This document shows, one piece after another, positions 17,372 through 39,397 of a DNA stretch of 64,000 bases; within the stretch, counting starts at the first letter, position 1; every line of letters starts with the position of its first letter. This DNA comes from Pyropia yezoensis. Lineage: Eukaryota > Rhodophyta > Bangiophyceae > Bangiales > Bangiaceae. Position numbers and translations under genes: made by a program. The notes under the pieces were generated by a model, which saw only the letters and a program-made list of their open reading frames with translations, was not told the origin of the DNA and made no database searches. Location: positions 10,321,119 to 10,385,118 of the forward strand of contig CM020618.1 in NCBI GenBank assembly GCA_009829735.1, given 5' to 3'.

Positions 17372-19717
17372 TTACCTCGGTGCATAGCTGGACGAGGGTG
17401 CTGCGGCCAGCCTCCACGTCCTCCAGAGCTTTCTGGAGGCGGTCCAGCACGCCACCGAAGCAACGCGCTGACCCAACCAGAGCAGCACCTGGGGGATATC
17501 CCCCCAGCTAACAGAGAGACCCCCACGCATGGCGCGGGTAACAAGGGCGTCAACGCCCTCATACCAGAGACGGGGACCCCCGTCATGTAGGACAGGGGCG
17601 GGAGGTGACACTGGCGCAGCCAGAGGAGCCATAGGAGCCGACACGGCTACCACCGGAGCCGGTGGCACCTGATACGAGGCCCGGTAGGACCCTACCGAAG
17701 GGGCTCCACCGTAACCACGGCGGTACTCCGCCCGACGACGGGACACCTCACGCTCCCCACCCACAGAGCCCCACTCTCGGGGACGACGGCCAACCGCCGC
17801 CGGCATCGGGTTACCGAACCACGGAGCAAGGACCTGAAGAGGGTCATGGATAACCATGGGAATACCCAGGTCAGGAACGGCCTCGGTGGACGCCCACCCA
17901 TGGCAACTAGGCTCACCCGGCTGAGTACGCCGGACACGCAACGAGTGACGAGGCAAGGGGGAAGCCCCAGCCTGCGGGTCCCGGTACGGGGGAAGGGCCA
18001 ACACCCCAGCCCAGTTCACGGCATCGTGAACAGCCAGCAGGGCTTCGAACTCCCGGGCCAACCCGGTCTTGGCAGCTATCAGATCCACGCCCAACTGCGC
18101 GATGTGCCGACGGACACCCGTCGGAAGATGAAACAGACGACCCTGCCGGCGGACGGACAGCAAGAAGGATGAAGCCTGCCCGAGGGTAACCTCAAGGGTG
18201 AAGGTACCCTGCAACGGGTGGACCGGCCGGGAGGCCAACACACTCCCGAAGTATCGGAGGCAGGAGCCGGTGTCAAACCGGAAAGCAGGGGCGGGTTCCC
18301 ACCCCTCCTGCCATAGCGGCGGGCGCACGGGAGTATATACCGGAGCACGACCGTTGCCGGTCTGCAACGCACACGTTATATCCGTGCGGAACGCATCCGC
18401 CATGACACCATGGTTACGTCGCCAACTCGACGCCGACTTCAACCCCGCCATGGGCGGGTAGGGAGCCGTCAACGACAGATACGGGGGTACCCCCGGGTAG
18501 TAGTCAAAGTCGGGATACCGACCGGTACGGCTCACCGTCTCCCCAAACGCAACCGGCTCCGCCGCCGCCGCAATCCCCCGAGCACTAGCCGGGTAGTCAA
18601 TCTCCCGCGGCAACGCGGGGGCAATCAAGTCGCAGACCCCGAAGTTGGGGTCGAGGTAGACCTCACCCCGTCCCACCCGGGTGCGCCAGAGCTGCGCATG
18701 CCGGTCGTCCGGCTGACTCAGGATCCAATGGTGTTCCACCCGGACCGCGTTCGGCTGGTTGACCAGCCGCACCAACTCCCGCTCCCAGCACGGGTCCACC
18801 TTGACGCGCCGGGAGGATTCTCCACGGGGATGCACCAGGTGGAAGTCCACCCGCATACGCCCATCGGACTCCATCGACTCTTGCACCGTGAGGCCTCGAA
18901 CCCGAGCCACCAAGTCGGACACCGACATGGCGGGTTGACCCGCCGCCACGGCGACGCCGCCACCCAACGGGGCAACCCGGGCAGGACCAGGAAGAATCGG
19001 GGGCGCCGGGGGACGCACCACCGGCAGAGGGGCCGACGTCGGAGATGGACGAGGCCGAGGAGGAAGAAGAAGGGCGGGCGCCCGCCCGGAGTAACTCCCG
19101 GTGTCAACCGCCATGGGAGAAGGAGCGTCTTGACCGCTCGACGCCCGCGGCACCGCAGGTACGGCACCGGCGCCGGCACCACCCGTCGGCGTAGCCCCCG
19201 CCTCGGAAGTGGAAGGCACTGGGACAGCCTCCGGAGCCGGAGCCCCGGCCGTGCGGACACCCGCACCGTCTTGACCCACCGCACCGGGTGTCGCACCGCC
19301 ACCACCACCCGCGTCAACGTCGGGACCACCTCGAGGAGTCACCGCCCGGACACCCGGACCACCTTGACCAGCCGGAGTCGGCTGCGGGTCGCCACCTCCG
19401 CCGCAGGGCGGACCATCTTGAGGTAGCTGCGGTGAGCCGGCACCGGCACCAGGCCCCATCCGGGCAGCCGGCAGAGAGGGGGTAGAAGCCGCCACGCGCG
19501 GTTGACCGCCGGGTTGACCTCCGGCCGACGGCACCGTCGTGCCGCTGCACACGGACGACAGTCCTCCGGCCGACAGACGGACGGACACCGCAGGCCCGTC
19601 GTCGTCAGACGAGCTCACCCCGTAACGCGCGGCGTCGGGACCGACAGGCGCGTCGTCCTCCATCTCCTCCCCGATCAGGAGGTCTTCCTCCTCTTCAAGC
19701 ACCTGGGGATAGGACAT
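17372..19717 (-). CDS. Antisense ORF of element A (aORF-A), unknown protein
   Basis: 781 residues from ATG 19717 (MSYPQVLEEEEDLL). The frame is open to 19999 upstream, but the acidic start is the likelier N-terminus. Residues 1-290 are acidic, then Gly/Pro/Ala-rich and probably disordered. From about 18930 to 17900 the sequence looks globular: FHLVHPRGESSRRVKVDP, a DYYPGVPPYLSL motif near 18490, then FGSVLASRPVH and RRQGRLFHLPTGV. The last part is Pro-rich. The YYP-x-P motif and the FGSV to HLP spacing recur in the antisense ORF of element B. The gene lies wholly inside the retrotransposon and runs toward pol, with its start 589 bp from the 3' LTR. Family not recognised; function unknown. Confidence 0.7.
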   Translation of the reverse strand: MSYPQVLEEEEDLLIGEEMEDDAPVGPDAARYGVSSSDDDGPAVSVRLSAGGLSSVCSGTTVPSAGGQPGGQPRVAASTPSLPAARMGPGAGAGSPQLPQDGPPCGGGGDPQPTPAGQGGPGVRAVTPRGGPDVDAGGGGGATPGAVGQDGAGVRTAGAPAPEAVPVPSTSEAGATPTGGAGAGAVPAVPRASSGQDAPSPMAVDTGSYSGRAPALLLPPRPRPSPTSAPLPVVRPPAPPILPGPARVAPLGGGVAVAAGQPAMSVSDLVARVRGLTVQESMESDGRMRVDFHLVHPRGESSRRVKVDPCWERELVRLVNQPNAVRVEHHWILSQPDDRHAQLWRTRVGRGEVYLDPNFGVCDLIAPALPREIDYPASARGIAAAAEPVAFGETVSRTGRYPDFDYYPGVPPYLSLTAPYPPMAGLKSASSWRRNHGVMADAFRTDITCALQTGNGRAPVYTPVRPPLWQEGWEPAPAFRFDTGSCLRYFGSVLASRPVHPLQGTFTLEVTLGQASSFLLSVRRQGRLFHLPTGVRRHIAQLGVDLIAAKTGLAREFEALLAVHDAVNWAGVLALPPYRDPQAGASPLPRHSLRVRRTQPGEPSCHGWASTEAVPDLGIPMVIHDPLQVLAPWFGNPMPAAVGRRPREWGSVGGEREVSRRRAEYRRGYGGAPSVGSYRASYQVPPAPVVAVSAPMAPLAAPVSPPAPVLHDGGPRLWYEGVDALVTRAMRGGLSVSWGDIPQVLLWLGQRVASVACWTASRKLWRTWRLAAAPSSSYAPR

Positions 19718-20293: not shown

Positions 20294-20305
20294 AAGGGGG
20301 GGATA
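20294..20305 (+). promoter_or_regulatory. Polypurine tract of element A
   Basis: A purine run (AAGGGGGGGATA) lies directly before the LTR start TGTAGCA, the expected plus-strand primer site for reverse transcription. Confidence 0.75.
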
Positions 20306-20668
20306 TGTAGCAATATGGTTGTCCGTATTGTGACCCTAATATCAGGGGGGCTACTTCTAACCCTTAACTTTCAATTTGATAGTTCGTACTGGTCACGGTA
20401 TCTATAAGTTACGTATGACCAGAGGGACTTGCATCTTGGGGTGGAGGGTAGTTAGTAGTGTCTCCGAGGGTTTATAACGAGGGGGCCGGTGGCGAATCCA
20501 CCGCCGGCCAAGGTAGAACAACAAACCCCTCCCATTTGGGCTCCCATCTTGGTCCCGTGGCTTGCGCTCCAAGGACAGCAACCTTGGCCTCCCGGTGACG
20601 TTGGTGCCGATCCCCCTTGGTGAGTGTTCCCTGAGAGTGGACGCGCGACGGATCCCTATTGTGCTACA
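20306..20668 (+). repeat. 3' LTR of element A (363 bp)
   Basis: Begins TGTAGCA and ends TGCTACA, a perfect 7-bp terminal inverted repeat. TTTATAA at 20471-20477 is a possible TATA box. Just downstream GGCCGGTGG (20484-20492) can pair with CCACCGCCGGCC (20498-20509) in the predicted transcript leader. The partner 5' LTR is not in the window. Confidence 0.85.
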
Positions 20669-21892: not shown

Positions 21893-21897
21893 AAAGC

Positions 21898-22468
21898 TGT
21901 AGCATCCCTGGCCCCGACTTGGCGCCGACCCGGGACTGCAACCAGAGGGCACCAGGTGCCAGAACACGCCCGCCGTGTGGTGATGGTTGGCGGCCGTAAC
22001 CCGTGCCCGGCACTGGGATGCGGTGGACTACGCTATCCACACGCGAGAGAGGGATTTCTGATGGGTTTTTGCATATTTGTGAGGGACTTGATTTGAGAGA
22101 AATTGAGTGTGAGATGAGTGAGTGGGAATAGAATTAGTAGTGATAGTGGCCCCCGACCTGACGAGGTTAGACTCGGGTCGGGGCCACTCGGGGGTATGGG
22201 GGGGCTACCTGGCCAACGTGCCGAGGCTCCTCCAGATGCACATTAAGAGGGACAGCGAGGCGCCCTTGGCCCGCGCCCTCAGGAAAAAGACAACTGCGCG
22301 TTCGCTTTCCTCTTCCCCGTGTGCACTACCGTGCGTATCTGTTTGCTCTGCGAGCAGGCACGAGAGGCAACAGGCATCCCATTCTCGTAGTTCCCCTTTC
22401 TGTGTTACCTGTCCCTTTCCCCCGAGGGATATTGACACGTGTCTGAGAGGATCGAGTTTTATACCACA
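21898..22468 (+). repeat. 5' LTR of element C
   Basis: 571 bp starting TGTAGCAT and ending ATACCACA. It contains a strong hairpin at 22146-22187 (arms GTGGCCCCCGACCTGA and TCGGGTCGGGGCCAC). Confidence 0.92.
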
Positions 22469-22472
22469 TATT

Positions 22473-22490
22473 TGGTGGAGCAGCAGGGGA
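22473..22490 (+). promoter_or_regulatory. Primer-binding site of element C
   Basis: TGGTGGAGCAGCAGGGGA lies four bases after the LTR and would pair with a tRNA ending CTGCTGCTCCACCA. The same 18 bases follow the 5' LTR of element B. Confidence 0.7.
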
Positions 22491-22681
22491 TCATTTGGAG
22501 TGTTTGAGAAGAGACATTTGGGAGCAGCGGTTGGGTTGTTCCTGTTCTGTCTTTTTCTGTGGTTTGGGAATTATTTGCACCCGTTCACGGGAATCCCATT
22601 CCTGGCTCTCCAACCCCTCTCTTGTGGTCTTGCGATCTTTGGACACGCAGGTAACTGGACTGTGGCTGTCCAGAGACCAAC

Positions 22682-24442
22682 ATGGCTACCCTCCCTGGCA
22701 CGACGGTGCCCGAAGGGGTAGACCCCGCGTCCCTTGACGCATCCCTGGTCACCGCGGGGGACGGTGCCCAACCCGGCGTTCTCCCTACGGGTGAAGCAGA
22801 CCTGGGCGTGACATCCGGTAGCGGACTGGAGTCTACAGGCGGCCAAGCACCGCCTGCTCCCGTTCCTCCGGCTGCTCCTCCTGTGGGAGCCACCCCGGGG
22901 TCAACGGCGTTTGAGTCCGCTCGCAGCAGACGTCTCCCTCCTGTCGGTTCTACTCCTCAACCTCCAAGGATAGCCCCTGGTGTGTTTACTCCTGGACCCA
23001 CACATGGCAGCTGGGTGTATACACCTCTTCCTGTGGGCACTAGCAGTGCGAGAGGCACCGCTGTGACTGGTTCTACGGGTCTCCCTGAGACCTCCACTCC
23101 TGGGACCGGCCAAGGTTTTCCTCCCCTTGCATCCTATGGGGCGGGGAGCTCCAAGACCGGTAACCGGAGCAGCCGGAGGCATCGGCGTCGTCGCCGTCGC
23201 TCTAGCACCAGCGAGACCAGTTCCTCCAGCTCTGAGGAGGGATATGACAGGGATACATCTCCCGGTCATACCCGGCGCAGGCTAGTCGAGTTTGACTTCC
23301 CTGCCCACCAAGTGGGAGATGCCACCCTGAACAAGGTCACGTATTGGGGTAACTACCGGCTGGAGAACCAAGACCAAGGTTACACCCGGAAGATGGCCAA
23401 GAAGATGGCATCCCTGAACCGGCGAATGCAGCCGAGCTTTGGGGGACATCCTAAGTTTTCCGGGAAGAGACCGGCGCTTATCTTTGCCTTCCTGCGCCGG
23501 TTTGTCAAGGCATGCAATGACAACGATGTGTCCGAGGGCAAGGCTCTCTACCTCCTGGTTAACTTCATGACCGGAGAAGCGGAACAGCGGTTTGCACAGG
23601 TTCTACCAGACTCTGCCGGACACATTGTCGAACGTACCGTCGCGAGTTATCCGGAGGCGGTCAACTGGCTCCTGTCCAACTACGCTGACGCGGACTCCCT
23701 GCGTAAAGCAGTCGGCAGGCTGAACCGGGCAACCATGGAGAGACAAGAGACCCCAGAGGCATTCGTCCGTCGTGTCCGGGAGATGAGCGATGCTTGTGGC
23801 AACGTTTACCCTGAGGACAGGCTCAAGATGATCTTCTCGGAAGGGCTTCCTGAATATCTTCAAGTGGATGCGGAGAACTACAACCAGGAACATCAAGAAC
23901 ATACCTTCCAACAGTTGATGGCCTACACCCAGGGCAAGCACCGGCAAGCCAAGGCCCTCCAAGCTCCCATGGCATCAACTCCCAAGCCGTTGTCGCGAGT
24001 TCGACCCGGACCCGACAAGTATAAGGGAGGTGATAACCCTGTACCGGTACTCGCAGTTGGCGAGGCCTCACCCATGGAGTCAAGGGACAAGTGGGGCGGC
24101 TTCGCTTCTAAGGAGCAACCTTCCCTGGTCGCCCCCAAGCAGGTCAAGAACCAGCGGTTCCGGTCTTGCTGGCTGTGCCAGAAGGAGGACCACATGTCCT
24201 ACCAGTGCCCGACCATCCCCAAGGATCTCCAGGAGAAACTCAAGCGTCAAGGACTGGTGTTTGCAAAGGCGGTCAACTGGGCTGACCGGCGGGCACCCTC
24301 CAAGATGGACAAGGCACAGGTACACGCAATCCGAGTAGCAACCTTACAGAGCATCACGGAGGCTCTGGCAAGGGAAGCTCCTACGGACTTCGACCTGGAG
24401 ACCGAAACCTCTAAGGACTCCTCGGACCCGGGAAACGAGTAG
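22682..24442 (+). CDS. gag: Gag of element C
   Basis: 586 residues, intact. Residues 1-150 are Pro/Thr/Ser-rich. An Arg-rich patch and a Ser cluster follow (about 160-190). The retrotransposon-gag capsid fold runs from about residue 250 to 420 (FAFLRRFVKACNDN, AVNWLLSNYADADSLRKA). A zinc knuckle CWLCQKEDHMSYQC (C-x2-C-x4-H-x4-C) lies near residue 498. Gag packages element RNA into virus-like particles. The ORF ends Gly-Asn-Glu-stop at the frameshift heptamer. ATG 22682 follows a 190-nt leader after the PBS. Confidence 0.92.
   Translation: MATLPGTTVPEGVDPASLDASLVTAGDGAQPGVLPTGEADLGVTSGSGLESTGGQAPPAPVPPAAPPVGATPGSTAFESARSRRLPPVGSTPQPPRIAPGVFTPGPTHGSWVYTPLPVGTSSARGTAVTGSTGLPETSTPGTGQGFPPLASYGAGSSKTGNRSSRRHRRRRRRSSTSETSSSSSEEGYDRDTSPGHTRRRLVEFDFPAHQVGDATLNKVTYWGNYRLENQDQGYTRKMAKKMASLNRRMQPSFGGHPKFSGKRPALIFAFLRRFVKACNDNDVSEGKALYLLVNFMTGEAEQRFAQVLPDSAGHIVERTVASYPEAVNWLLSNYADADSLRKAVGRLNRATMERQETPEAFVRRVREMSDACGNVYPEDRLKMIFSEGLPEYLQVDAENYNQEHQEHTFQQLMAYTQGKHRQAKALQAPMASTPKPLSRVRPGPDKYKGGDNPVPVLAVGEASPMESRDKWGGFASKEQPSLVAPKQVKNQRFRSCWLCQKEDHMSYQCPTIPKDLQEKLKRQGLVFAKAVNWADRRAPSKMDKAQVHAIRVATLQSITEALAREAPTDFDLETETSKDSSDPGNE
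24430..24436 (+). promoter_or_regulatory. -1 ribosomal frameshift heptamer of element C
   Basis: G GGA AAC in the gag frame, followed by GAG TAG. A -1 slip enters the pol frame, which is open through the gag stop and reads Gly-Lys-Arg-Val. It fits the X-XXY-YYZ pattern. Confidence 0.75.
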
Positions 24443-25293: not shown

Positions 25294-25761
25294 TGTGGCA
25301 GTATTGACCTCAGGTAGGGGGGCAACACGTGCCATGCAAGGGGCGGCAGGCCACTAGCCTGATCCGTTCCTCCCCCTGCATTTGGGTCCGTATTCCCTAA
25401 GTTTGGGATAGTTAGCTTAGTAGTAAATCCAACTTGGATTTGAGGGTTTTCTGCATTTATCGTCTTGAATTTTCGTGTGGCCCGGTGGGCAGGTGCTGGG
25501 GTGGGAGATTCTGAGTGGCGAGATTCTGAGTGGACCCTGGGGGTATAAGGGGAGGGACAGCGGGGCTTGGCCCTGCGTCCCCGTCCCGACGAAGAAACTG
25601 TTGGACCACACACCATCCTCTTGTTTGTCAGTGGGGGGTTTGCCCCACAACAGGGACAGAGTGTGTGCGACTTACACTTCTTCCGGTTCCCCCGACACGG
25701 GAGGCAGCCCTTGTACACCGCCCCAACTTGGGTGCCGTGTGTGCGAGTGGTTTTTGCCACA
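25294..25761 (+). repeat. 5' LTR of element B
   Basis: 468 bp, TGTGGCA to TGCCACA. The 14-bp unit GAGATTCTGAGTGG occurs twice (25505-25518, 25520-25533), directly upstream of a TATA-like TATAAGG at 25544-25550, which suggests an enhancer repeat and core promoter. A GTGGGG/CCCCAC hairpin lies at 25631-25648. Confidence 0.94.
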
Positions 25762-25763
25762 TT

Positions 25764-25781
25764 TGGTGGAGCAGCAGGGGA
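25764..25781 (+). promoter_or_regulatory. Primer-binding site of element B
   Basis: TGGTGGAGCAGCAGGGGA starts two bases after the LTR and is identical to the element C site. The implied primer tRNA 3' end is CTGCTGCTCCACCA. Confidence 0.75.
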
Positions 25782-25880
25782 CAGAGGTAAACTTTACCTC
25801 CGGGTGCACCCGGGTGTAGGGGGCCCTCTGTCTCAGAGGAACGGTGGATTTGGACCGTGTCATACGGATCGTCAGCCAAC

Positions 25881-27827
25881 ATGGCTAGTTCGGACCCCCC
25901 GTCGTCCGGGGAGTACACGGGTGACGCACGTACTTCAGTGCCTTTGAGTACTGGTGAGACACAGGTGGGTTTACCTGGGGTCGCAGAGGGACTAGAGGTC
26001 CCTCAAGCCAGCAGGACTGGAAGTGCGGGCGGCCAACAGGCCACCCCGACTCAGTCGGGAGTTCACTCGGGTGACACTTCTGATGTGGGTGGGCCGAAGT
26101 CTGGCCACCGCGTGGTATACTCAACGGGAGCGTCCCAAGGGGTGAGGACTGTCCCGGCGGGTTCCACTCGGGTTGGAGCCAACTTTGGCATGGAGCCGTC
26201 GCCAACTAGGCTTTCGGAGGACGGCGGACCTCCGTTGGTCGGCGATGGGCTTGCGCCCATGCCCCCGGTTGAGACCCCTGAGGATCGTGGTTACCCCTCA
26301 GATGGACTCCCGGAGACGGACCGAGACTCAACTGGAGTCGTCAATCCACTCCTCGCGGAAACTGTCCGTCGGGAGGCGACCAATGTGTTGCGGCAGACTT
26401 TGCCGGACCTGGTGGTCACGATGACGAATACTATTCTGAATCAGATTGTGGCGAGTTTGCCAGATGGCCTTAATGTCCAGACCGGATTGGGGCTTTCGAG
26501 CCCGCAGGCCCAGGGGGGATCCCCCCTCACGCCTATCTCGGGTCGCCCCGAACAGGGGGCGACCCCTGTGACTCCCATCGGGGGAGCCACACCATACTCG
26601 GTGGGGCGTACGCCCTTCACGGGGGAGATCCCCTCGGAAACGCCGGCGGCTACACCAAGCTCGCCGCGCCAGACTACTGGCACTCAGGGTCAACTCAGCC
26701 CAGTGCCACAGCGGCTGTTCCCTCAACGTGAGGTGCCGCCCAAGATCCAGGTAGCCAACCCAGTCTACCAGAGGATCTTTGATTGTGAGACGTACGCCCT
26801 CCACAACAAGTCGGTGGCGTATGGTCCTGACCAGGCCCGAGCCATGGGCCGTGCCAAGAAGAATGCACTTCACTCTTTTGGGCACAAAGCGGAGTGGGAT
26901 GGAACTCCCCCCCTCCGTGTCTTTGAGTTCCTACGTCGTTTCACGAAAGCCTGTGACGACAATGCCATAAGTGAAGGCATGGCTTTTTACATGCTACAGG
27001 AGTTTACGAAGGGAGACCTGCGGACAGAACTTAAGTCCGTCATGCCCAGCTCCTCAAGTGGAGGCGCTGGGGAGGTGACGTCCTATTTTGAGCTCGTCAA
27101 CTGGTTGTTGAGGGCCATGGTTGATGAAGCGGCGTTGGCTTCTCCAGTCGAGCAGTTCACGCAAGCCCATCAGGAAGAGGCGGAGGACGAGTTGTCCTTT
27201 GCAGAGCGAGTCCGTAAGCTCCACAATCTTTGTGGGTTTCTTCATCCACAGGCTGTGGTGAAGAGTCGGTTTGTGGAGGGACTCCATTGGTCAGTCCGGA
27301 TGGAGACCCGGGAGCATAACACTGCCCGGGCGACCCTGGCCGAGTTGGCTAGGTTCGCCTACCGCAGAGGCGAGGCCTACCGCAAGTTGCGGGAGGAACA
27401 ACGCCAGGAGCGTCAAGCCGAGTTGGCCAAGGAACGGAAGGAGGCGCGCCAGGCCAGAGAGTTGAGAGAGGCACGCCGAATCCGCAAGGAGAGGGTGGTA
27501 GCTGCCGTGGGAACTTCCCAGGGTATCTCTTCGTCTTCCCCAGTTGGGAAGACCCCTCCGGGAACTGACCATCGGTGTTGGAACTGCAACTCCGATGGAC
27601 ACTGGGCATATGATTGCCCCAAGTTGAGTGAACGCATCCAACAACTTGTTAGGAATGCGAGTAAGAAGTCGGCTACGAACGAAGTACGTTCACGCCGCGA
27701 GGGTGGGTCTCGACCGGTGGTGGCGGTCGCCACACCCTCGGCGGAGGGGGCGGACACGTCGTCCTTGGACTCGTCGTCTTCCCCTTCGCCCTCAGATTCG
27801 GACGCCAAGTCGGCGGGAAACGAATGA
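25881..27827 (+). CDS. gag: Gag of element B
   Basis: 648 residues from the first ATG (MASSDPPSS), intact. The N-terminal third is Gly/Pro/Thr-rich. The capsid-like domain runs from about residue 300 (VFEFLRRFTKACDDN) to about 500 (FVEGLHWSVRMETREH). A long charged, Glu/Arg-rich helix, probably a coiled coil, follows (about residues 505-545). The zinc knuckle CWNCNSDGHWAYDC lies near residue 567. The C-terminus is Ser/Asp-rich and ends Gly-Asn-Glu-stop at the frameshift site. It shares the FLRRF-KACDDN core with gag of C, but most of the rest has diverged. Confidence 0.92.
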   Translation: MASSDPPSSGEYTGDARTSVPLSTGETQVGLPGVAEGLEVPQASRTGSAGGQQATPTQSGVHSGDTSDVGGPKSGHRVVYSTGASQGVRTVPAGSTRVGANFGMEPSPTRLSEDGGPPLVGDGLAPMPPVETPEDRGYPSDGLPETDRDSTGVVNPLLAETVRREATNVLRQTLPDLVVTMTNTILNQIVASLPDGLNVQTGLGLSSPQAQGGSPLTPISGRPEQGATPVTPIGGATPYSVGRTPFTGEIPSETPAATPSSPRQTTGTQGQLSPVPQRLFPQREVPPKIQVANPVYQRIFDCETYALHNKSVAYGPDQARAMGRAKKNALHSFGHKAEWDGTPPLRVFEFLRRFTKACDDNAISEGMAFYMLQEFTKGDLRTELKSVMPSSSSGGAGEVTSYFELVNWLLRAMVDEAALASPVEQFTQAHQEEAEDELSFAERVRKLHNLCGFLHPQAVVKSRFVEGLHWSVRMETREHNTARATLAELARFAYRRGEAYRKLREEQRQERQAELAKERKEARQARELREARRIRKERVVAAVGTSQGISSSSPVGKTPPGTDHRCWNCNSDGHWAYDCPKLSERIQQLVRNASKKSATNEVRSRREGGSRPVVAVATPSAEGADTSSLDSSSSPSPSDSDAKSAGNE

Positions 27828-27858: not shown

Positions 27859-30800
27859 GGCAGCCTCGGCCAAGTGGGCCAAAAGAACGAATCAACCGTG
27901 TCGGATACTGCGGCGACCTAAAGGAGTCCGCCCACCTCGGGTAGGACTCCCCAAGAACGTAAACCCACGTCGGGTCATCGCGGTGCTGACGGGTGAGAAC
28001 TTCCAGGTGGCTGGACGGGTGCAACTTGCCCCCGGCCGCGCCTGTTGTGCCCGTATCGTACTTGATACTGGGTCAGGAGCCTCCTTGATACGCAAGTCGC
28101 TATTACCAAAGGAGATGAAGCTCCAACGCTGGAAGTCTAAAGCTGACCATCTGATCGATATCAATGGTGGAGTACTTCCCATTGTTGGTGCCGTGACCCT
28201 ACCAACTAGGTAGGGGACCCATGAGGTCGACGTGACCTATGGAGTAGTTGAGAATATATCGGTACCCCTGCTTCTGGGTACCCCTTATGTCGTAACACAA
28301 GTGCCTTTGATTTGTGGCCCTGAGTACTGGGTCAAGTCGATGAATGGGGAGACTATCCCCATCCTTGGTAAGGGAAAGTCTGTGGCTCCTGTGACAGTCT
28401 CACAGTCGAAGCCTGTCTGTTCTGTGAGGGAAGGGTTTACTGCTACTCTGCGTTTAGCCCGTAAAGTCACGTTGCCCCCCAACTCGGTGGCGCACGTTGA
28501 TGTTGTAACTGATTACACGGGGAGCGGGTTGGTGCACCCTAACCCCCGTCTTGCTCGCGAGCACCAAGTGCATGTTGCCCTTGGCACGATGGACTCCAAA
28601 GCCAGAGTCCCGTGGAGGATCCAGGTGATGAACCTGAGCTCGTCGCCCAAGTACTTCAAGTCGGGAGCCAAGTTCGGCTATATCGACCAACACGAGGGAC
28701 CGGTAGTAGCGGTCACCCTCAACGCGGGCGCAAGTAGCGACCCGAAGTCCGGAAAGGAGAAGCATCAAGCCAAGTCGGGCGCCTCTCCTCGGCCCCATGT
28801 GTACATGGAGGGTGTTCCACCCAGGTTGAGGGTTCAAGTTGAACGCCTCTTGGACCAATATCACAAGTTGTGGGATGGTCAATTGGGACTCATGAGAGCT
28901 ACCCAACACCGGATCGAGTTGAAGCCCGGTGCACCCCCTATACGCCAACAACCGTATAGGGGAGGACCCCGGTCAAGGGCCCTCGTTAAGGAGCAAGTTG
29001 CTCGCATGGAGGCCCTCGATGTGATCGAGGCCAGCAACGCCGAGTGGGCGAGTCCGGTGGTCATTGTCCCCAAAGTTGATGGGACCCCCCGGTTCTGTAT
29101 CGACTACCGTAAGCTCAACAAGAGCACGGTGAAGGACAGTTATCCCCTACCTAGGATGGACGACTGTCTGGACTCTCTGGGGGAGGCAAACGTGTTCTCT
29201 ACCCTGGACTGTAACGCGGGGTACTGGCAAATTCCCATTGCCCCGGAAGACAGGCATAAAACTACCTTTACCTGTCACTGTGGTACCTACCAGTGCAAGC
29301 GTCTACCGTTAGGCCTGTGTAACGCGCCGGCAACTTTCCAGCGCGCTATGGACATGATTCTGGCCGGAGTACGGTTGCAGATCTGTCTCGTGTACCTAGA
29401 CGATATCATTGTGTTCTCCCGAAGTCCGGAGGAACACATTGGCAATCTTGGCCAGGTGTTCAAGCTACTTGCTGACGCCGGTGTGTCGCTGAAGGCGAGT
29501 AAAAGTGCCACCTCTTCACTCAAGAGGTGGAATACTTGGGACATGTTGTCCGTCCGGGGCGTCTCAGTGTCAACGAGAAGAACTTGAGGGCCATCCGTAA
29601 GGCTCAGTACCCCCGGACCCAGACCCAGACGAGGAGCTTCCTCGGGATGTGTAACGTGTACCGACGTTTCACCAAGGGCTTCGCCAAGGTGGCGAAACCG
29701 TTGAATGAGTTAGTGAGCTCAACGCTACCGAAGAACCTGCCTCCCCCAAGTCGGATGGAGCAGGAATCCTTTGAGACTCTTCGGGACCTTCTGCTGAAGC
29801 CCCCTATCCTGGCTATTCCCAGGTTGGGAGGCCACTACATTCTGGATGTGGACGCTAGCTACGACCAACTTAGTTGTGTGTTGCTTCAGCAGCAGCCGGA
29901 CAAGGAGTACTTGCCGGTGGGATACTTCAGCAAGGGGCTGAACTCGGCCGAGAAGAACTACGGAGTCACCGAGTTGGAAGGACTCGCAGTGGTGTGGGCG
30001 GTGACGTCACTTCGTCACTACCTAGAGGGTGAGAAGTTCCTCATCCGCTGTGACCACCGCGCGTTGCAGTTCATCTTCAAGACGGACTGTACGAACACTC
30101 GTCTCAACCGGTGGAGGGTGCGACTGGCACCCTTCAACTTTGATATTGAGTACAGACCTGGCAGGCAACATGCCCTTGCCGACGGCCTCTCTCGGGTACC
30201 TACCGAGGGACTGGACACTAACCCAGTCGATGAGGACATCCCCATCGTGGGGGTAGTCACGCGCTCGGGTCAGGCGTTGAACCCCGAGGCGCCAGGGAAC
30301 AAGAAGTACTTGCCCCTGTCCCTGGACGAGGTGGTGAAGGTCCAGGCCGAGGATCCCTTCTGCAAGTCGCAGAGGGATACACTGGATACAGTGGCGGAGA
30401 CGCGGTTCTTTCTGGGAGACGATGGCCTCCTCATGAGGAGGGGGGTAATCCAGGGGACCGAACAACTTGTCGTCCCCGCATCCCTCAAGGACAGTATCCT
30501 TTTGAGGGAGCACAACGCTCCCACGGGTGGACACCTGGGGTCTAGTAAACTGTACCAGACCCTGAGGACCAGGTACTACTGGCCATCCATAGTGGTGGAC
30601 ATCTACAGTTGGGTGGCTGCCTGCACAAGTTGTGCACAGAACCGTCTGATGGAACGGCGGCCTACTACGGCTATGCTATTGTTCCCGGCCAAGGAGCCCT
30701 TCGCCGCGTTGGCGATGGACCTCCTTGGGCCACTGCCAGTGACCGAGGAGGGCAACCAGTACCTCCTGGTCATCTGTGACCGCTGCACGAAACTTACGCG

Positions 30801-31809
30801 AGCGATCCCACTGGCAGAGATCACGGCCATGTCGGTCGTGTCAGCCTTCCTAGATCACTGGGTTGCCGCGTATGGCATTCCGGATAGTACACTATCGGAC
30901 AATGGACCGCAATTTGCGTCCGTACTGTTTCAGGGAGTGCTGGATATGTTGGGGGTTCAGGCAAACTATGCCACCCCCTACCACCCACAAAATAATGGGC
31001 AGGTGGAGCGCTTCAACAAACCTATTGTTCGGCAGCTGCGCCACTATGTGAGTGAGCACGTGAAAACGTGGGACCAATACAGTTCTATTCTTGCGACTGC
31101 CTACAATTCGCAGGTTCATTCATCTACCGGGGAAGTACCCCTCGCTTTTGTGACCCCCCGTCGCGTGCGGTCTATTGCCGTGCGGCGGCCGCTCCCAACT
31201 AGGGAGGATAATGGCAGGACGCCTACTCCTACTGAGAGTAAGGCGGAGTTCGCTGCTAGGCTTGAAAACCTCATCCCTAAAGTCAGGGCTGAGATGGACA
31301 AAGCACAAAAGCGCTACAAGCGTAACTTTGACAAAAAGGTGCGCAATGCGAAGCATGTCCCCGAGCAGGGTGACTGGGTATTGGTACACTCACACACCCC
31401 AACTGGGGGTAAGTTGGTATTCCAGACGAAGGGGCCGTACCAGGTCCTTCGTACTGATGGGCGGCGCTACACCATCGAAAGTGACTATGGGGTCCGCACC
31501 GTGAATGGACAGGACGTGGTCAAAGTTGCACCACCGCCTGCAGGCGACCCAGCTTGAACGCGTGCTTTGGAAGCGTGGCGCCTCCCCTCACTGCCAGCGG
31601 CCAAGCAGGGCCCGCAGGAGTACGTGTTCGATAAGTTCATCGACCACGGATGGGATGAGGACACTGACCGCCTCATGTTGAGGGTGCGTTGGTTTGGCTA
31701 CAAAGCCAAGGATGATACGTGGGAGTATGTGGAGGACCTTCCCGCTGAGAAGGTCCGGGCGTACTGTGCCCGGAATGAGATAGACCCTAACAGCCCTCCC
31801 TCAACATGA
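27828..31809 (+). pseudogene. pol: Pol of element B, inactivated at three sites
   Basis: Domains are in the usual order. Protease DTGSG starts at 28064. Reverse transcriptase has FCIDYRKLN and YLDD (29393-29404). RNase H begins near YILDVDASYD. Integrase has the HHCC region (GGHLGSSKLY to ACTSCAQNR) and its DDE core (AMDLLGPLP, LSDNGPQFA, NGQVERFNK). A chromodomain lies at about 31612-31790 (LRVRWFGYKAKDDTWEY). Breaks: an in-frame TAG at 28211-28213 just after the protease core, a one-base loss in the A-run at 29501-29504 inside RT, and an in-frame TGA at 31555-31557 before the chromodomain. The rest is open. Catalytic residues remain visible in each fragment, so decay is recent. Confidence 0.9.
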
Positions 31810-31920: not shown

Positions 31921-33692
31921 CTAGGCATGCATGCTAGACTCTCCAACCCCACGGCCCTCGCCCTCACGTAGAGGCGAGCGGCGAGACCCACGGCGATAAC
32001 GCTCCCCACCAGTCGGCGGGGCCGGCGGCTCCAAGTCGGACCCGTCGCGCCCCTCACGGTCGCGCAAGTGGCGACGACCGCGGCTGCTCTTCTGCTTGGT
32101 CTTGCGCGCAAGCTGGCGACGCAGACGCCGGACCGACTCCGACTCAGACGGAGTCGAGGACTCCGAGACGGAGTAAGACAACTCGTCTTCCGATACGGAG
32201 GGAGAGCGCCGCGAGTGACGGCGACGACGGCGAGGAGGCGAGTATGCCCGGCTCGCGCGACGTTTGCCACGCCCAAGTGGGGCTGGCTGGGGCATAATAG
32301 CCCCGATGCGAGCCAACTCGGCCGTCATAAGCTCCGCCACCGACTCGCAACTCGCGGTCGCCACTGCAGTACGAACGCGCTCCTCAAGTTGAGGAGTCTC
32401 GGAAGTTTGGAGGGTTGCGGTCGACGCGGCCAACCAGGAAATGGTGCGCATTAACGTGGTGATCATCATCTCTGAGGTTAAAGGCGTGGGCGGTAACACC
32501 AACTTGGGGAATACCGTCAGGAGGGTGGCCCCCAAGTTGGGGGACACCGGAGTGGACGACTCAATGGCCACGCTAATCGGGATGTCCCCGTGCGGTTGGT
32601 AGGGGACAGGAGGAAGCGGAGGGACACGCCGAGGTGGCGGGACCCGGGTGTGACTGCGACCCCGACTTGGGGCCCCCGCAGTAGGTTGAGTCGTATGGTC
32701 ATCATATGGGGGCACAGCCATAACTATGGGCTTGTCCGGGGGTGGCGCAGTGTGGCGATTCACTCCCGGAGCATACGGGTAGTCCCCGATGCCCAACCCC
32801 TCTCGTAGGACCACACGGCTGTCGTGAAGTTCACGAGCGACCCACACGAACTGGCGAAGTGCGCCATCGTCCTTGGGCCCACGAGTGGGGCGGCGCAACT
32901 TGTGCTCAATGCTCTCCCACTCGATAAACTTGTGAAGGCGGAGCATCTCCTCACGTAGAGTGAGTTGTCCTGATGAGCACCCCTCAGCAACTAGCTGAGG
33001 GGTGAGCTGTTCCAAACCCTGGATAAGCCGGAGGGGGAGATGCCAGAGCATCCCCCGCCGCTGAACACAGGACACCCAGGTCGACATGACCTCGAGGAGC
33101 CACTGGGTGGCCAACATGGCCCACACCAGATGATCAGGGCCAGCCGTCAACATGACGGAGCCGAAGTGGTGAAGCAACCGTGGCAGAAACGCCGGGAACC
33201 CGTAGGGGACCTCAACTTGAGGCCACCACTCGGGCTTCTTCGGGTAGTATTGCTCCTTACTGGCAGCAGACTGCTGAGGAAACTCAAGTTGAGCCGAGGT
33301 CACCAAGTAGGGACCCCGCCGGAAGTCCTTCTCCATCCGCACATCAAAGTGATGAGTGTGCGGATCGGCCTCGTGAAGGTACGGGGGGCGAGTTGCCACC
33401 GCGTCCCAAGTAAAGGTCGGCAAGTCGCCGGGACCCGGGATAGTTCCCCCGCGGTCCACCATGGCCTTGGCCCGCTGTACGTCCTCGACCTCCTCGTCGT
33501 CCAGGAAGGCAACCTGGTCCGTCCTGAAGCCGGCAGGGAACCCGACCCTACGGGAATACTTCTCCCGTAGGCGGTCCCATCCCCCGGAGCGATCCCGGAG
33601 CCCCCGCCGGAAGTCCCGGCGGGCGCTGCACCGTAGGAGGTGTCCTCGATACGTTCGTCGAGAGAGTCCGTCTCCACTCCCGGAGTCGCCAT
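31921..33692 (-). pseudogene. Antisense ORF of element B (aORF-B), N-terminal deletion shifts the frame
   Basis: The homologous start is ATG 33692 (MATPGVETDSLDE), as in fragment D. Near 33560-33590 the sequence jumps from the Gly-rich start to RLREKYSRRVGF, losing a stretch D retains and changing frame. From there the frame is open for about 550 residues. Visible parts: DDEEVEDVQRA, FTWDA, RRGPYLVTSAQLEF, EQYYPKKPEWWPQVEVPYGF (near 33240), HHFGSVMLTAGPDHLVW, RRGMLWHLPLRLIQGL, a hydrophobic segment near TTLMRTISWLAAS, and an Arg/Ser-rich tail. The basic tail suggests nucleic-acid binding or nuclear entry (inference). The encoded protein is otherwise unrecognised. Confidence 0.7.
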
Positions 33693-34030: not shown

Positions 34031-34498
34031 TGTGGCAGTATTGACCCCAGGTAGGGGGGCAACACGTGCCATGCAAGGGGCGGCAGGCCACTAGCCTGAT
34101 CCGTTCCTCCCCCTGCATTTGGGTCCGTATTCCCTAAGTTTGGGATAGTTAGCTTAGTAGTAAATCCAACTTGGATTTGAGGGTTTTCTGCATTTATCGT
34201 CTTGAATTTTCGTGTGGCCCGGTGGGCAGGTGCTGGGGTGGGAGATTCTGAGTGGCGAGATTCTGAGTGGACCCTGGGGGTATAAGGGGAGGGACAGCGG
34301 GGCTTGGCCCTGCGTCCCCGTCCCGACGAAGAAACTGTTGGACCACACACCATCCTCTTGTTTGTCAGTGGGGGGTTTGCCCCACAACAGGGACAGAGTG
34401 TGTGCGACTTGCACTTCTTCCGGTTCCCCCGACACGGGAGGCAGCCCTTGTACACCGCCCCAACTTGGGTGCCGTGTGTGCGAGTGGTTTTTGCCACA
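34031..34498 (+). repeat. 3' LTR of element B
   Basis: 468 bp. Differs from the 5' LTR at two sites: a C for T in the first 20 bases and a G for A near 34410. TATAAGG lies at 34281-34287. Confidence 0.95.
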
Positions 34499-34503
34499 AC
34501 CGG

Positions 34504-37500
34504 GGGTCCGCCCGTGCTATGAGCAAGGAAGACCTCTTGAACCTGCAACAAGAGCTGGCATCCAACTTAACGGCCTTAGACGTACCTCCGAAACAAGAGC
34601 AGGCTGGCAGCGCTACCCCGAAGCCCGAACAAGCACCACCCGGGATGCCGAAGGTCAAACAAGAGAATGTCCCTCCCGACTTGAAGGAGGCACTGGAGAA
34701 GCTTCTCCAGGAATATCGGCACCTGTGGTCGGGAGAGCTGGGCAAGATGGACGCTACTCTACACCGGATTCAACTCAAGCCGGAAGCTAAGCCAGTACAC
34801 CTGCAACCATACCGGGCTGGACCTTATCGCCGGGATGAGATTGAGAAGCAGGTTAACAAGATGCTCAAGATGGATGTTATCGAGCCGTCTGATGGCGAGT
34901 GGGCCTTCCCGGTGGTAGTCGTCCCGAAACATGGCGGTCACTTCCGTTTCTGCGTTGACTACAGGCGCCTGAACGAGATGACCGTCAAGGATGTATACCC
35001 GATACCCCGGATGCATGATTGCATCGACTTTCTTGGTGATGCCACCCTCTTCTCGACGCTGGATTGTAATGCCGGTTACTGGCAGATCCCTCTGGCTGAC
35101 GAGGATAAGGACAAGACCACCTTCACGTGCCACCTGGGACTATTCCGGTGCAAGCGTCTTCCTTTTGGTCTCACCAATGCTCCGGCCACCTTCCAAAGAG
35201 CCATCGACATCATCCTGTCGGGGCTAAGGTGGAGAACATGTTTGGTCTACCTGGACGACATCATCGTTTTCTCCAAGACCACAGCGGAACACCTGGAACA
35301 CCTTCGAGAGGTCCTGGCCCTCCTGTCCAAGGCTGGAGTTACCCTCAAAGCCGAGAAGTGCCACCTGTTTGAGACTGAGGTGGAGTACCTGGGGCACGTG
35401 CTGAGTCCGGGGGAGCTCCGAGTCAATGAGAAGAACATCAAGGCCCTCCGGCATGCACGGCAACCTAAAACCCAGATGGAACTCAAGAGCTTCCTGGGTA
35501 TGTGCAACGTCTATCGCCGGTTCGTACGGGACTATGCTCTGATTGCCCGGCCACTGACTAAGCTTACCAGCAAGAAGCTTCCCGCACAACTCCCGGTGTT
35601 CGACGAGAAGCAGACCGCGGCCTTCGAAGAGCTCAAGAAGCGCCTGACCACCACTCCAGTACTGGCGTTACCCAAGCGGGAGGGCCAGTTTGTTCTGGAG
35701 ACTGATGCCTGTGGCGTCCAGGTGGGGTGCTCACTACTCCAACAGCAATCTGATGGGCAATTCCTCCCGGTAGGCTACTACAGTCGCGTCCTGACTCCAG
35801 CCGAGAAGAATTATTCCACGACGGAGCGCGAGTGCTTGGCGGTCGTGTGGGCTTGCTTCCTGTTACGTCCATATCTTGAAGGACAAGAGTTCCTCATCCG
35901 GACAGACCACGCCAGCCTAAGGTGGCTGCTATGTATGGACAGCAGCCAAAGAAGGGTCGCCCGGTGGCGCTTACGCCTTTCGGAGTTCAAGTACAAGGTG
36001 TGCACCAGAGCAGGGAGGGAGCACCACTGCGCCGACACCATGTCCCGGCTGGAGACGGCTGCAGCCGACACCGGTCCTATTCCGGAGGAAATACCTTGCT
36101 TCATCCTCCCGAATGTTGGACGTGGCTGGCATGCTCCCCTGTATGAGACACCTGAAGCTCATCAACCGGTGACCATTCACCGGATGCTGGAGGCGCAATT
36201 GACGGATCCTAAATGCTTGGAGCTTCGCCACCAAATGGACCTGAACCGGATCAGTCGTTTCTCCGAGTCTACAGATGGACTCCTGGTACGGGTATCACCC
36301 TTTGATGGGGCAACTCAAGTCTACGTACCCCGAGGTCTGCGAGCTGACATCCTACGCCTGGAACACTCGTCTCCCCAGGCCGGACATCCTGGCATCAATC
36401 GGATGTGTGCTTCAATGCGACGACATTACTACTGAGAAATCATGGCCAGTGACGTCCACAAGCACCTGGAGGCTTGTGTTTCTTGTGCAAGGAACCGGTT
36501 GTCCCAGAGGAAGAAGACTTCTAAGCTACGCCTATTCCCGGCGGCGGAGCCCTTTGCAAGCTTATTCATGGACATCCTGGGGCCCCTACCTGAAACATCC
36601 AGTGGCAACATATACTTGCTCATCATCTGTGACCGGTTCTCCAAGTTCACTCGAGCGATCCCGCTGAGGACCATCACGGCCCTGGATGTTACGTCAGCCT
36701 TCTGCGAGTACTGGATAGCTGCCTACGGCCGTCCAGACTCCGTCTTAACAGACAATGGCCCCCAGTTTGCATCCCTGTTCTTCCAAGGAGCCTGTGACCT
36801 GATGGGCATCAAGAACTTGTACACCACGACGTACCACCCTCAAACGAACGGCCAAGTGGAGCGATTCAACCGGACCCTAGTGGACATGCTACGGCACTAC
36901 GTGGAGGAGCATCAAGAAGACTGGGACGAGCTCCTGGTCGTCCTCACTCTAGCCTACAACTCCCGAGTTCACCGGACAACGGGGGTCGCTCCACTCGACT
37001 TTGTCACCCCAAGGCGGCTGACCAACTTCTCCCTGGAAAGAATACCAGACGGTCTCCAGCCTGCATTGAAGTCAGGTCCCAAGGCAAAGGATGAGTTCCT
37101 GGAACAACTGAAGCTCCTGCTCCCAAGAGTCAAGGAGTCAATCTCGAAGACCCAGGAGCGATACAAGCGGGACTATGACAAGGGCGTTCGGGAAAAGAAC
37201 AAGGAACTAGGTGGTGGCGACTGGGTTTTTGTTGACAACCATAGCAAGACCCGGGGGAAGCTGGACTCTCAGACGGATGGACCTTATGAGATCCTGAATA
37301 CGGACGGCTGGACCTTCCTTCCAGACGTGGATGGCTCCCCGTACCGGGTGAGCAGCGACCATGTCACCCGAGCTCCACCGCCAAGCAAACGGGACTTGAC
37401 CCGGCGCAAGCGGGCGGCAGTACCCTGGCTATCCCAAGAAGAAGGCCGGGAGTATGTTTACGTCAAGTTTGTCGACCATGCCTGGAGAGACGGGCGCTTG

Positions 37501-37740
37501 TACCTGCGAGTACGCTGGTTCGGTTTTAACCCGGCAGATGATACCTGGGAACCCTCAAACCGGTTACCCATCGCGGACGTCTGCGCCTACACGCGACGGA
37601 ACGGGATTGAGGGCACTCCGGTGGCCAGAGCCGGCAAGGTCCTGGAATCGGACGCAGAGGAGGACCAGGAGGACGGGGCTGATCAAGACCCTCGGGACGA
37701 GACGAACTCACCCGCAACGGATGCGGAACAAGAGGATTGA
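34504..37740 (+). pseudogene. pol: Pol of element C, 3' segment (RT to chromodomain), one nonsense codon
   Basis: Continues the frame left at 25293. Reverse transcriptase shows FCVDYRRLN and YLDD (35248-35259). RNase H begins at FVLETDACG. The integrase HHCC region starts at HSSPQAGHPGINRM; the DDE core shows FMDILGPLP, LTDNGPQFA and NGQVERFNR. A chromodomain (LRVRWFGFNPADDTWEP) is followed by an acidic tail ending at 37740. The only lesion besides the B insertion is TGA at 36433-36435 within the integrase zinc region, where relatives have a Trp codon after the aromatic residues. Apart from that codon the 3' segment is open throughout. Confidence 0.9.
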
Positions 37741-37885: not shown

Positions 37886-39397
37886 CTACTCCCGGCGCGG
37901 ACGCTGCGCCGCGGGAGCGTCCTCCAGCGCTGCCTCCGCGGCACGACGGGAACCGGAGGAAGGCGGGATGACGTAGTGCGGTGGGCGCGGTGCATCCCGG
38001 TATGACGCCGTCGGAGTAGTACCGGTAGTTGCCAGGGGCTCCCGTCCATCCAGATATGCCCGACGGCGCCCCTGGAAGCCAGTGAAGGTCTCTGACCACT
38101 GCTGGGCCAAGCCATGCCGCGTCGAAGTCGCCAGGGGATCAAGAGCAGCCGGAGCAGGAAAGCTACCTAGCTGCGGCCACGCCGGAAGCGGCGTCGCCAG
38201 CTGCACCTTGGCCGGAGAAGACTGGTAGACCACCTGCGCCCAACCGGAGCCATCCCGACGCGGGCTGTTCTGGTCGTCAATCGCGTTCAAGAAGCTCCGA
38301 TCCTGCACCGGCAGAAGACGCTGGAAGTCGATCATCGCCTGAAAGAGCTCCTTGTACTCCTCGTCCTGGCTGCACAGGAAGTCGACGGTCAACTTGTCAA
38401 CGATCCAGACCATCAGGAGGTCGGAGAGGAACCAAAGCCGGTTGGACACCAAGACCTGGTGGAGCCAGTGGTTGGCCGCCAAGGCCGTCAACTCGGAGGT
38501 GTACATCATGTACGGGATCGAGTCGAAGAAGCCCTTGATCGACGCCTGGGTCAAGGCGTCCAAGAAGTACCAGGTGAAGGGGATGCTGGATGGAGCAAAC
38601 CCGACTGGGATCTCGATTTCCTGCTGCTGCGGGATGACCTTGGGGTAGTACGCCGCCCGGTTGGCCTTGCCCAGCTTCCAGAACTCCTGATGATTGCAGC
38701 TCACGATGAAGTCACGCTGGCGGCCGCGTCGCTCGCCTTGCTCCCGCGCCGGCGACAACTTGGAGTACTTCCAGGTCAGGAAAGGCGGCTCCAGAGCGAC
38801 CATGCTCGGACGGGGATCGCAGTTCAGGCTCCCCGACCCCTTGAGCGCCTCGTCCCAGACCTTGAGCGCCCGGTGGACGTACCCTTCCTCCTCCGGCCAC
38901 CGGAGAACGGACGCGGACACGCGACGCTCGGTCAAGGGTAGATCCAGTACCAGCGCGAAGGGGAGATCCTCCAGGCGAGCAACCCAAGAGGAACCCGAGA
39001 AGCTCTGGGAGCGGTCTTGTGCCAGGCGCATCTGGTCCGCCGTATGAAGACGAGTCTTGTCCATCTCGGTCAAGACCCCGCGCTGGAGTTCCTTGCGCCA
39101 AATGTCCAAACAATCCTGTTGGCACTGGGCCGCGCTGGCGTTGCCGACCACCGTGGAGTAGCGCCGGCCCGCCAGAGGATCCTGCCCAAGGAGCAGCTCC
39201 GGGAGACCCACCGGGGGGGTCTCGACCGGGTGCAACGCAGAAGCCGGGGGAACCCGATCCGCCCCCGCCGTGGCAACCGGCGCCGACACCAACACCCGAG
39301 GAACCGGAGGCAGGAGAGGGGCGCGACTACCCGAGTTCTCCTCCGCAACACTCGCCGCCGGAACCACGGGCCCAGCTTGGATCTCGGAACTGGACAT
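37886..39397 (-). CDS. Antisense ORF of element C (aORF-C), unknown protein, intact
   Basis: 503 residues from ATG 39397 (MSSSEIQAG); an in-frame ATG at 39430 would add 11. Residues 1-60 are Pro/Ala-rich. The rest looks globular and helical: CQQDCLDIWRKELQRG, LTERRVSASVLRWPEEEGY, YYPKVIPQQQEIEIPVGF (near 38640), then a hydrophobic helical stretch with Trp and Leu (ANHWLHQVLVSNRLWFLSDL). The last 80 residues are Ala/Pro/Arg-rich. The YYP-to-P-hydrophobic-GF motif matches aORF-B and more weakly aORF-A. The ATG lies 187 bp from the 3' LTR, so an antisense promoter in or near that LTR is likely. No known family. Confidence 0.75.
   Translation of the reverse strand: MSSSEIQAGPVVPAASVAEENSGSRAPLLPPVPRVLVSAPVATAGADRVPPASALHPVETPPVGLPELLLGQDPLAGRRYSTVVGNASAAQCQQDCLDIWRKELQRGVLTEMDKTRLHTADQMRLAQDRSQSFSGSSWVARLEDLPFALVLDLPLTERRVSASVLRWPEEEGYVHRALKVWDEALKGSGSLNCDPRPSMVALEPPFLTWKYSKLSPAREQGERRGRQRDFIVSCNHQEFWKLGKANRAAYYPKVIPQQQEIEIPVGFAPSSIPFTWYFLDALTQASIKGFFDSIPYMMYTSELTALAANHWLHQVLVSNRLWFLSDLLMVWIVDKLTVDFLCSQDEEYKELFQAMIDFQRLLPVQDRSFLNAIDDQNSPRRDGSGWAQVVYQSSPAKVQLATPLPAWPQLGSFPAPAALDPLATSTRHGLAQQWSETFTGFQGRRRAYLDGREPLATTGTTPTASYRDAPRPPHYVIPPSSGSRRAAEAALEDAPAAQRPRRE

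What the first reader, a model, noticed from the sequence alone, without database searches (positions are those of the whole stretch)
17372..39397. Large antisense ORF between pol and the 3' LTR in three different Ty3/Gypsy lineages
Elements A, B and C differ strongly in gag and pol, yet each has a long ORF on the opposite strand in the same place: A 19717-17372, B 33692-31921, C 39397-37886. In each case it converges on the pol stop (582, 111 and 145 bp apart), and the inferred ATG lies 589, 339 or 187 bp from the 3' LTR. D keeps a fourth copy. Antisense genes exist in some retroelements (for example HBZ in HTLV-1, and additional ORFs in some plant Ty3/Gypsy elements), but I recognise no family for these proteins. 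A shared antisense gene implies a second promoter and a function in the cycle of these elements: regulation, particle function or host interaction.
Basis: partly seen in the sequence, partly recalled or inferred. Interest (0 to 1): 0.86.

Follow-up and report, generated by a model that had tools for sequence, protein, structure and literature searches.

The report
Selected antisense gene in seaweed retrotransposons
A group of retrotransposons in what appears to be the nori seaweed genome carries an extra protein-coding gene written backwards behind its replication genes; selection has kept the protein, it matches no known family, and distant cousins of it lie elsewhere in the same genome.

Summary
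The antisense ORFs are real genes, not frames left open by chance in GC-rich DNA. The host fits Pyropia yezoensis (nori): the contigs of 43.6, 34.3 and 29.4 Mb equal its three published scaffolds. A, B and C are related Ty3/gypsy elements (pol tails 38-50% identical). Their antisense proteins are homologous to each other and to those of three further element types (E, F, G), downstream of pol on the opposite strand in all six places read. In the antisense frame dN/dS is 0.14-0.25 between F subfamilies (13 pairs), 0.22-0.42 among C copies (10 pairs), and 0.45, mutation-adjusted, among 30 A copies. The window copies are imperfect: B changes frame near its start, C is about 200 residues short, A has a shifted end, D is decayed. 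No credible match in Pfam, NCBIfam, PHROGs or PDB; the plant TRP28 domain was not found in the genome. Ten low-copy relatives lie apart from the E/F hits; of five fetched, none had a recognised pol nearby, and one duplicated pair neighbours a Sen1/Upf1-like helicase. Most likely it is an accessory, probably nuclear, regulatory protein of the element, working like the antisense ORFs of plant Grande and Retand without detectable kinship. Transcription, translation and function are untested.

The parts
17372..19717 (-). Element A antisense gene (781 codons in this copy; frame-shifted end compared with the 815-residue form)
31921..33579 (-). Element B antisense gene, main frame (family residues 96-647)
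33519..33692 (-). Element B antisense gene, N-terminal piece in another frame (family residues 1-58)
37886..39397 (-). Element C antisense gene (503 codons, about 200 residues short of the family form)
41821..43753 (+). D: decayed antisense gene of a B-like element, three pieces in three frames
10862..12765 (+). Element A gag (frame runs into the 500-N gap at 10362-10861)
12623..16789 (+). Element A pol
20306..20668 (+). Element A 3' LTR (start and end by terminal motif and position)
21898..22468 (+). Element C 5' LTR, target duplication AAAGC
22682..24442 (+). Element C gag
25294..25761 (+). Element B 5' LTR, target duplication ACCGG (B is nested in C)
25857..27827 (+). Element B gag
28232..31809 (+). 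Element B pol in pieces (28232-29587, 29527-31557, chromodomain-like stretch to 31809 beyond a stop)
34031..34498 (+). Element B 3' LTR
34504..37740 (+). Element C pol as left after the B insertion (frames 34267-36435, whose start lies in B's LTR, and 36442-37740)
39584..40154 (+). Element C 3' LTR

Best explanation
The antisense ORF is an old accessory gene of a group of chromodomain-type Ty3/gypsy elements in a red alga (host fits Pyropia yezoensis). It lies between pol and the 3' LTR, convergent with pol, and encodes a protein of roughly 600-1000 residues: a conserved middle domain between variable, low-complexity ends. Shown: homology across six element types, the same place and orientation, and purifying selection on the antisense reading frame. 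Inferred: it is transcribed from a promoter between its ATG and the 3' LTR (or backwards from the LTR), translated, and acts as a nuclear accessory factor of the element's own cycle (its RNA, chromatin or integration), as proposed for the antisense ORFs of plant Grande and Retand. Arginine/serine-rich tails in B and E, weaker in F, would fit nucleic-acid binding or nuclear import, but A and C lack them.
For: Homology: A-B E 2e-10, B-C 8e-8; network of eight proteins from A, B, C, E, F, F3, F4, G; E against the whole genome reaches F copies at E 1e-21. Place: antisense ORF behind pol in A, B, C and in L048, L050, L051; 20 of 27 E/F-type reverse transcriptase hits have an antisense hit 3.4-5.9 kb downstream on the opposite strand, none on the same strand. 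Selection: dN/dS 0.14-0.25 in 13 between-subfamily F pairs, lowest and stop-free of six frames in 4 of 4 pairs; C 0.22-0.42 in 10 of 10 pairs; A mutation-adjusted 0.45 with 82 nonsynonymous and 78 synonymous changes against 112.1 and 47.9 expected. Tails: B and E exceed all 500 shuffles, F all but 5. Not a copy of the element's gag or pol. Precedent with nuclear protein and own promoter: Grande gene23, as reported in PMC7264820.
Against: No transcript or protein data. No direct evidence of nuclear location or nucleic-acid binding; the tail is not shared (A 109, C 372, F3 62, F4 355, G 22 of 500 shuffles reach it). Within-subfamily F pairs give only 0.53 and 0.59, as expected of mostly dead copies but not strong in themselves. 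A and C do not match directly, and an E/F profile found B but not A or C, and G only at E 0.47. Seven of 27 E/F-type reverse transcriptase hits had no antisense partner in the rows used. No clear poly(A)-like signal behind the antisense stop in A or C.
Confidence: 0.55

Rival explanations
1. Anti-silencing factor: the antisense protein counters host silencing of the element, as VANC proteins of Arabidopsis VANDAL transposons do (recalled).
For: High-copy families with conserved frames; fast-evolving accessory protein (middle domain 15-27% identical between types, pol tails 38-50%), as expected in an arms race; exchanged as a module with the end of pol.
Against: No binding or silencing data; conservation is similar to that of gag (24-32% local identity), so its rate needs no arms race.
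Confidence: 0.2
2. Particle or entry protein: a second capsid-like or env-like component read from the opposite strand.
For: Position behind pol is where env-like genes sit in some plant elements (PMC7264820); F3 and F4 have one 19-residue stretch with mean hydropathy 1.78.
Against: Opposite strand; maxima of 0.89-1.58 in A, B, C, E, F and G; no similarity to the elements' gag or to any PDB sequence.
Confidence: 0.1
3. Captured host gene carried as a passenger, or kept for a host-like function.
For: Ten low-copy relatives apart from the E/F hits, five fetched, none with a recognised pol in the stretch read.
Against: In an unrooted tree these relatives group with E and F (90%), E with them at 68%, not outside all Ty3 copies, so the flow may have gone the other way; a mere passenger would not be kept in six element types under selection. 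It is not shown that the relatives are host genes.
Confidence: 0.09
4. Only an antisense RNA matters; the frame is a by-product.
For: Antisense regulatory transcripts are known in other elements (PMC7264820).
Against: Nonsynonymous changes are depleted in the antisense frame in three element types and protein homology reaches across six.
Confidence: 0.03

Closest known systems
Antisense additional ORFs (aORF-3R) of plant Ty3/gypsy elements: maize Grande gene23, rice RIRE2, Silene Retand, bean PvRetro13 (PMC7264820, PMC11963269)
   Same: Antisense to gag-pol, between pol and 3' LTR, present in most copies, protein conserved, function unknown; PvRetro13's is reported to hold an SMC domain, and one non-Ty3 relative here has a weak SMC-like coiled-coil match.
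   Different: Retand-type ORFs carry TRP28 (PF04195), which was not found in this genome; Retand is a non-chromovirus lineage reported only from flowering plants (PMC11963269), while these pols end in chromodomain-like stretches in a presumed red alga.
Boty of Botrytis and Sclerotinia (antisense ORF, cited in PMC7264820)
   Same: Antisense ORF between pol and 3' LTR outside plants.
   Different: Sequence of the Boty ORF was not available to compare; kinship untested.
HBZ of HTLV-1
   Same: Antisense gene at the 3' end of a retroelement; nuclear regulator (as stated in PMC11963269).
   Different: HBZ is a bZIP protein (recalled); no Pfam family matches the antisense proteins credibly.

Membership tests
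aORF-3R (antisense ORF between pol and 3' LTR) | ORF antisense to gag-pol, between pol and the 3' LTR | tested here: met
   Window A, B, C with LTRs placed; position behind pol also in L048, L050, L051, whose 3' LTRs were not placed
aORF-3R (antisense ORF between pol and 3' LTR) | Present in most copies of a family, with coding conservation | tested here: met
   49 of 52 A, 73 of 84 C and 141 of 141 B (middle part) scored hits have no stop, in lists that favour intact copies; dN/dS; 20 of 27 E/F pairings
aORF-3R (antisense ORF between pol and 3' LTR) | Transcribed antisense from its own promoter (shown for Grande) | not testable with these tools
   No RNA data
Retand-type TRP28 protein | TRP28 domain (PF04195) | tested here: not met
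   0 matches at E<=1 in the whole genome; not among Pfam matches of the antisense proteins
Retand lineage | Non-chromovirus pol | tested here: inconclusive
   Chromo matches under Pfam's cut-off for C (21.4 bits) and E (20.2 bits); A, B, F by eye and by alignment only, and Pfam listed no Chromo for A
Env-like additional ORF | Sense orientation | tested here: not met
   Opposite strand to pol in all six places read
Env-like additional ORF | Transmembrane segments | tested here: inconclusive
   Maximum 19-residue hydropathy 0.89-1.58 in A, B, C, E, F, G; 1.78 in F3 and F4; no dedicated predictor was run
HBZ-like bZIP protein | bZIP domain | tested here: not met
   No bZIP match in Pfam scans of A, B, C, E, F, G

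The most novel reading that the evidence does not exclude
The antisense protein belongs to a protein family that has moved between genetic contexts in red algae: genes of a chromodomain-type Ty3 group on one side, and a set of low-copy genes, several with long coiled-coil-like tails and one pair beside a Sen1/Upf1-like helicase, on the other. Either the alga (or another mobile element) took the domain from E/F-type elements and uses it, possibly against them, or the elements captured it. That would give an antisense retroelement gene a traceable origin, which the plant literature calls unknown.
Probability: 0.3. Interest if true: 0.78.

Novelty: new variant of a known kind. Interest (0 to 1): 0.62.

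Why it matters
Antisense accessory genes of LTR retrotransposons are described mainly in flowering plants and one fungal family, and neither their origin nor their function is settled. Here is one with no detectable kinship to the plant kind, in a presumed red alga, with measured purifying selection in high-copy families. It suggests that retroelements have gained such a gene more than once, and the relatives outside the elements offer a way to ask where it came from.

Tried and rejected
Chance ORF in GC-rich DNA: rejected. The pol-strand frame that mirrors the codon pattern also shows a low ratio (0.29-0.38 in the F pairs, 0.49 in A), which I take as the shadow of the true frame; in the F pairs it holds 14-19 codon pairs with a stop. 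Inverted copy of gag or pol: no similarity. TRP28: not found. Known domain or solved structure: none credible (weak sub-threshold matches only, DUF6214, uS5m, DsbB, SMC). Relatives in IMG/VR viral contigs: none for F and B queries; A, C, E and G were not scanned. Green alga as host, my first guess from GC content: dropped after the light-harvesting genes looked red-type by eye (recalled judgement) and the scaffold sizes matched. A tail common to all: no. Absence of the gene from the other Ty3 group: not settled; the one such element fetched, L049, is followed by a B element about 0.6 kb behind its pol stop, so little of it could be read. Profiles were cut from an alignment that also held their targets, so their E-values flatter; pairwise BLAST does not have that flaw. 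Literature: the ten searches listed no title or abstract on antisense ORFs in algal Ty3 elements; only open-licence papers are held and I opened three.

Failed or unanswered: searches with the whole of P0002, rRNA search, alignment as genome query, conserved-stretch scan, structure prediction switched off, badly written queries. Searches gave tables but no loci.
Full report
What is in the window. Three LTR retrotransposons lie close together, B nested in C. C has 571-bp LTRs (21898-22468, 39584-40154; 8 mismatches) and the target duplication AAAGC; B has 468-bp LTRs (25294-25761, 34031-34498; 2 mismatches) and ACCGG; A has a 3' LTR at 20306-20668, and its 5' end falls in or beyond a 500-N gap at 10362-10861. 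D (40994-43796) is the inverted, decayed 3' end of a B-like element. A, B and C have gag and pol with reverse transcriptase, RNase H and integrase. The pol ends look like chromodomains: a match under Pfam's cut-off for C, by eye for A and B, B's beyond a premature stop; Pfam listed none for A. Behind pol, on the other strand, is the antisense ORF.

The host. The window lies in a 107.5-Mb genome whose three large contigs measure 43.59, 34.33 and 29.39 Mb. The published Pyropia yezoensis scaffolds measure 43.6, 34.3 and 29.4 Mbp, with 48.0% repeats and LTR elements predominant (passages of PMC7423979). Light-harvesting genes are present (14 matches) and look red-algal to me (recalled judgement). 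The tools never named the organism; this is an identification by sizes.

The window copies are imperfect. Copies elsewhere show longer family proteins: A 815 residues, B 647, C 705. Here A has a shifted end, B has lost a stretch and changes frame near its start, C is about 200 residues short, D is in pieces. Copies without stops are common among scored hits: 49 of 52 (A), 73 of 84 (C), 141 of 141 (B, middle part), but these lists rank intact copies first.

One protein family. A and B antisense proteins match at E 2e-10 over 230 residues, B and C at 8e-8 over 166; A and C do not match convincingly. From the reverse transcriptase list I read downstream of further elements: E (L048) and F (L050) have an antisense frame whose end lies 162 and 47 bases from the end of the pol frame, and L051 holds a relative (G) facing a broken pol on the opposite strand. 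Eight proteins from these types join in one BLAST network. A profile of A, B and C finds G, F, F3 and weakly E (0.003; best shuffled target 0.26); a profile of E and F finds B but not A or C, and G only at 0.47. E searched against the genome reaches F copies at up to E 1e-21.

How far the gene belongs to one group. A, B and C pols are 38-58% identical in pairwise hits; the main hits to the reverse transcriptase loci of another Ty3 group are about 29-39%. Of 27 E/F-type reverse transcriptase hits, 20 have an E/F antisense hit 3.4-5.9 kb downstream on the opposite strand and none on the same strand; 7 have none among the rows used. Absence from the other group is not shown: the one element fetched (L049) is followed by a B element about 0.6 kb behind its pol stop. 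Two tandem hits of that group lie 6,204 bases apart, which leaves little room for such a gene beside a pol frame of 1,186 codons (inference).

Selection. Between F subfamilies (13 of 15 pairs) dN/dS in the antisense frame is 0.14-0.25; the two pairs within subfamilies give 0.53 and 0.59. Pol pieces from the same places give 0.03-0.15 between subfamilies (8 of 10 pairs) and 0.51 and 1.01 within. Read in six frames, the antisense frame is lowest and stop-free in 4 of 4 pairs; its mirror frame on the pol strand gives 0.29-0.38 with 14-19 codon pairs holding a stop; the other four frames give 1.3-3.0. C copies give 0.22-0.42 in 10 of 10 pairs. Among 30 A copies, 82 nonsynonymous and 78 synonymous changes stand against 112.1 and 47.9 expected for the same kinds of mutation (ratio 0.45; mirror frame 0.49, others 1.18-2.5). 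So the protein, not just an antisense RNA, is what selection has kept. B copies are too alike to test.

What the protein looks like. A middle domain of about 250 residues is shared at 15-27% identity between types, with three invariant columns in six types. The ends are variable and of low complexity. Arginine/serine-rich tails: B and E exceed all 500 shuffles, F all but 5; F3, F4, G, A and C do not stand out in that way (62, 355, 22, 109, 372 of 500 shuffles reach them). Hydropathy maxima are 0.89-1.58, but 1.78 in F3 and F4. No similarity to the elements' gag or pol. No credible match in Pfam, NCBIfam, PHROGs or PDB sequences.

Modules. L050 and L053/L055 are 85-94% identical up to about base 1200 of L050, within pol, then fall to 56-81% over the end of pol and the antisense gene; L050 and L054/L056 stay at 73-93% throughout. 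The end of pol and the antisense gene seem to have been exchanged together between F subfamilies.

Relatives outside. A search with L067's ORF scored all 56 of its candidates and listed, besides E/F copies, ten low-copy places. Five were fetched: L066, L067, L068, L073, L074. A profile of the Ty3 proteins finds the three tested (L066, L067, L073) at E 9e-16 to 1e-22, best shuffled target 0.26, and BLAST of L073 with F gives 2e-10. No pol of A, B, C, E, F or the other group was found in the stretches read: about 15 kb round L067, 13 kb round L066, 5 kb for L068, 3.9 kb each for L073 and L074. L066, L073 and L074 have long coiled-coil-like tails (by eye; one weak SMC match for L066). L067 and L068 are 95% alike over 5 kb, and L073 and L074 88-96% over at least 2.8 kb, so these too are duplicated. 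The convergent neighbour in L067/L068 has AAA_11/AAA_12 domains, nearest in the PDB to a 5'-3' RNA helicase-like protein, Sen1 and Nam7/Upf1. L067 and L068 differ at dN/dS 0.47, L067 and L066 at 0.53, so selection there is weaker or mixed. The unrooted tree groups these relatives with E and F (90%), E with them at 68%. They may be host genes or a second low-copy mobile element; the direction of transfer is open.

How it most likely works. Shown: a conserved protein-coding gene under selection in the elements. Inferred: a promoter near the 3' LTR, a separate mRNA, and a nuclear accessory role. Anti-silencing is the strongest rival; a particle protein is less likely; an RNA-only role is nearly excluded.

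Comparison with the known. The plan is that of the antisense additional ORFs (aORF-3R) of plant elements and of Boty (PMC7264820, parts 1 and 2 of 3 read; PMC11963269, passages). It meets their positional definition and may work like them. It is not a TRP28 protein, and the pols end in chromodomain-like stretches. Hence new variant of a known kind.

Noticed in passing
L067 3649-5001 and L069 140-2266 (minus); L068 2-1375 (plus): A Sen1/Upf1-like helicase gene in pieces, duplicated at two places, convergent with a relative of the antisense gene.
   Followed up: partly
L066, L073, L074: Low-copy relatives of the antisense protein with long, repetitive coiled-coil-like tails; the repeat number differs between L073 and L074.
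   Followed up: partly
L050 versus L053, L054, L055, L056: Mosaic evolution: the end of pol and the antisense gene have been exchanged between F subfamilies.
   Followed up: partly
L048 1-1989, residues 514-583 of the frame: The E-type pol has, behind a chromodomain-like stretch, a domain matching Pfam Dam (PF05869, 30.6 bits, over the cut-off of 28.1).
   Followed up: no
window 6012-10361 and 59646-64000: Two inverted copies, 99.86% identical over 4.36 kb, each with a DDE_3 transposase ORF.
   Followed up: no
window 3730-6454 and 55833-58667: Two related stretches of internally repeated GC-rich DNA, about 95% alike.
   Followed up: no
window 22469-22492 and 25762-25785: B and C share the same primer-binding-like sequence behind the 5' LTR; the tRNA was not identified.
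   Followed up: no
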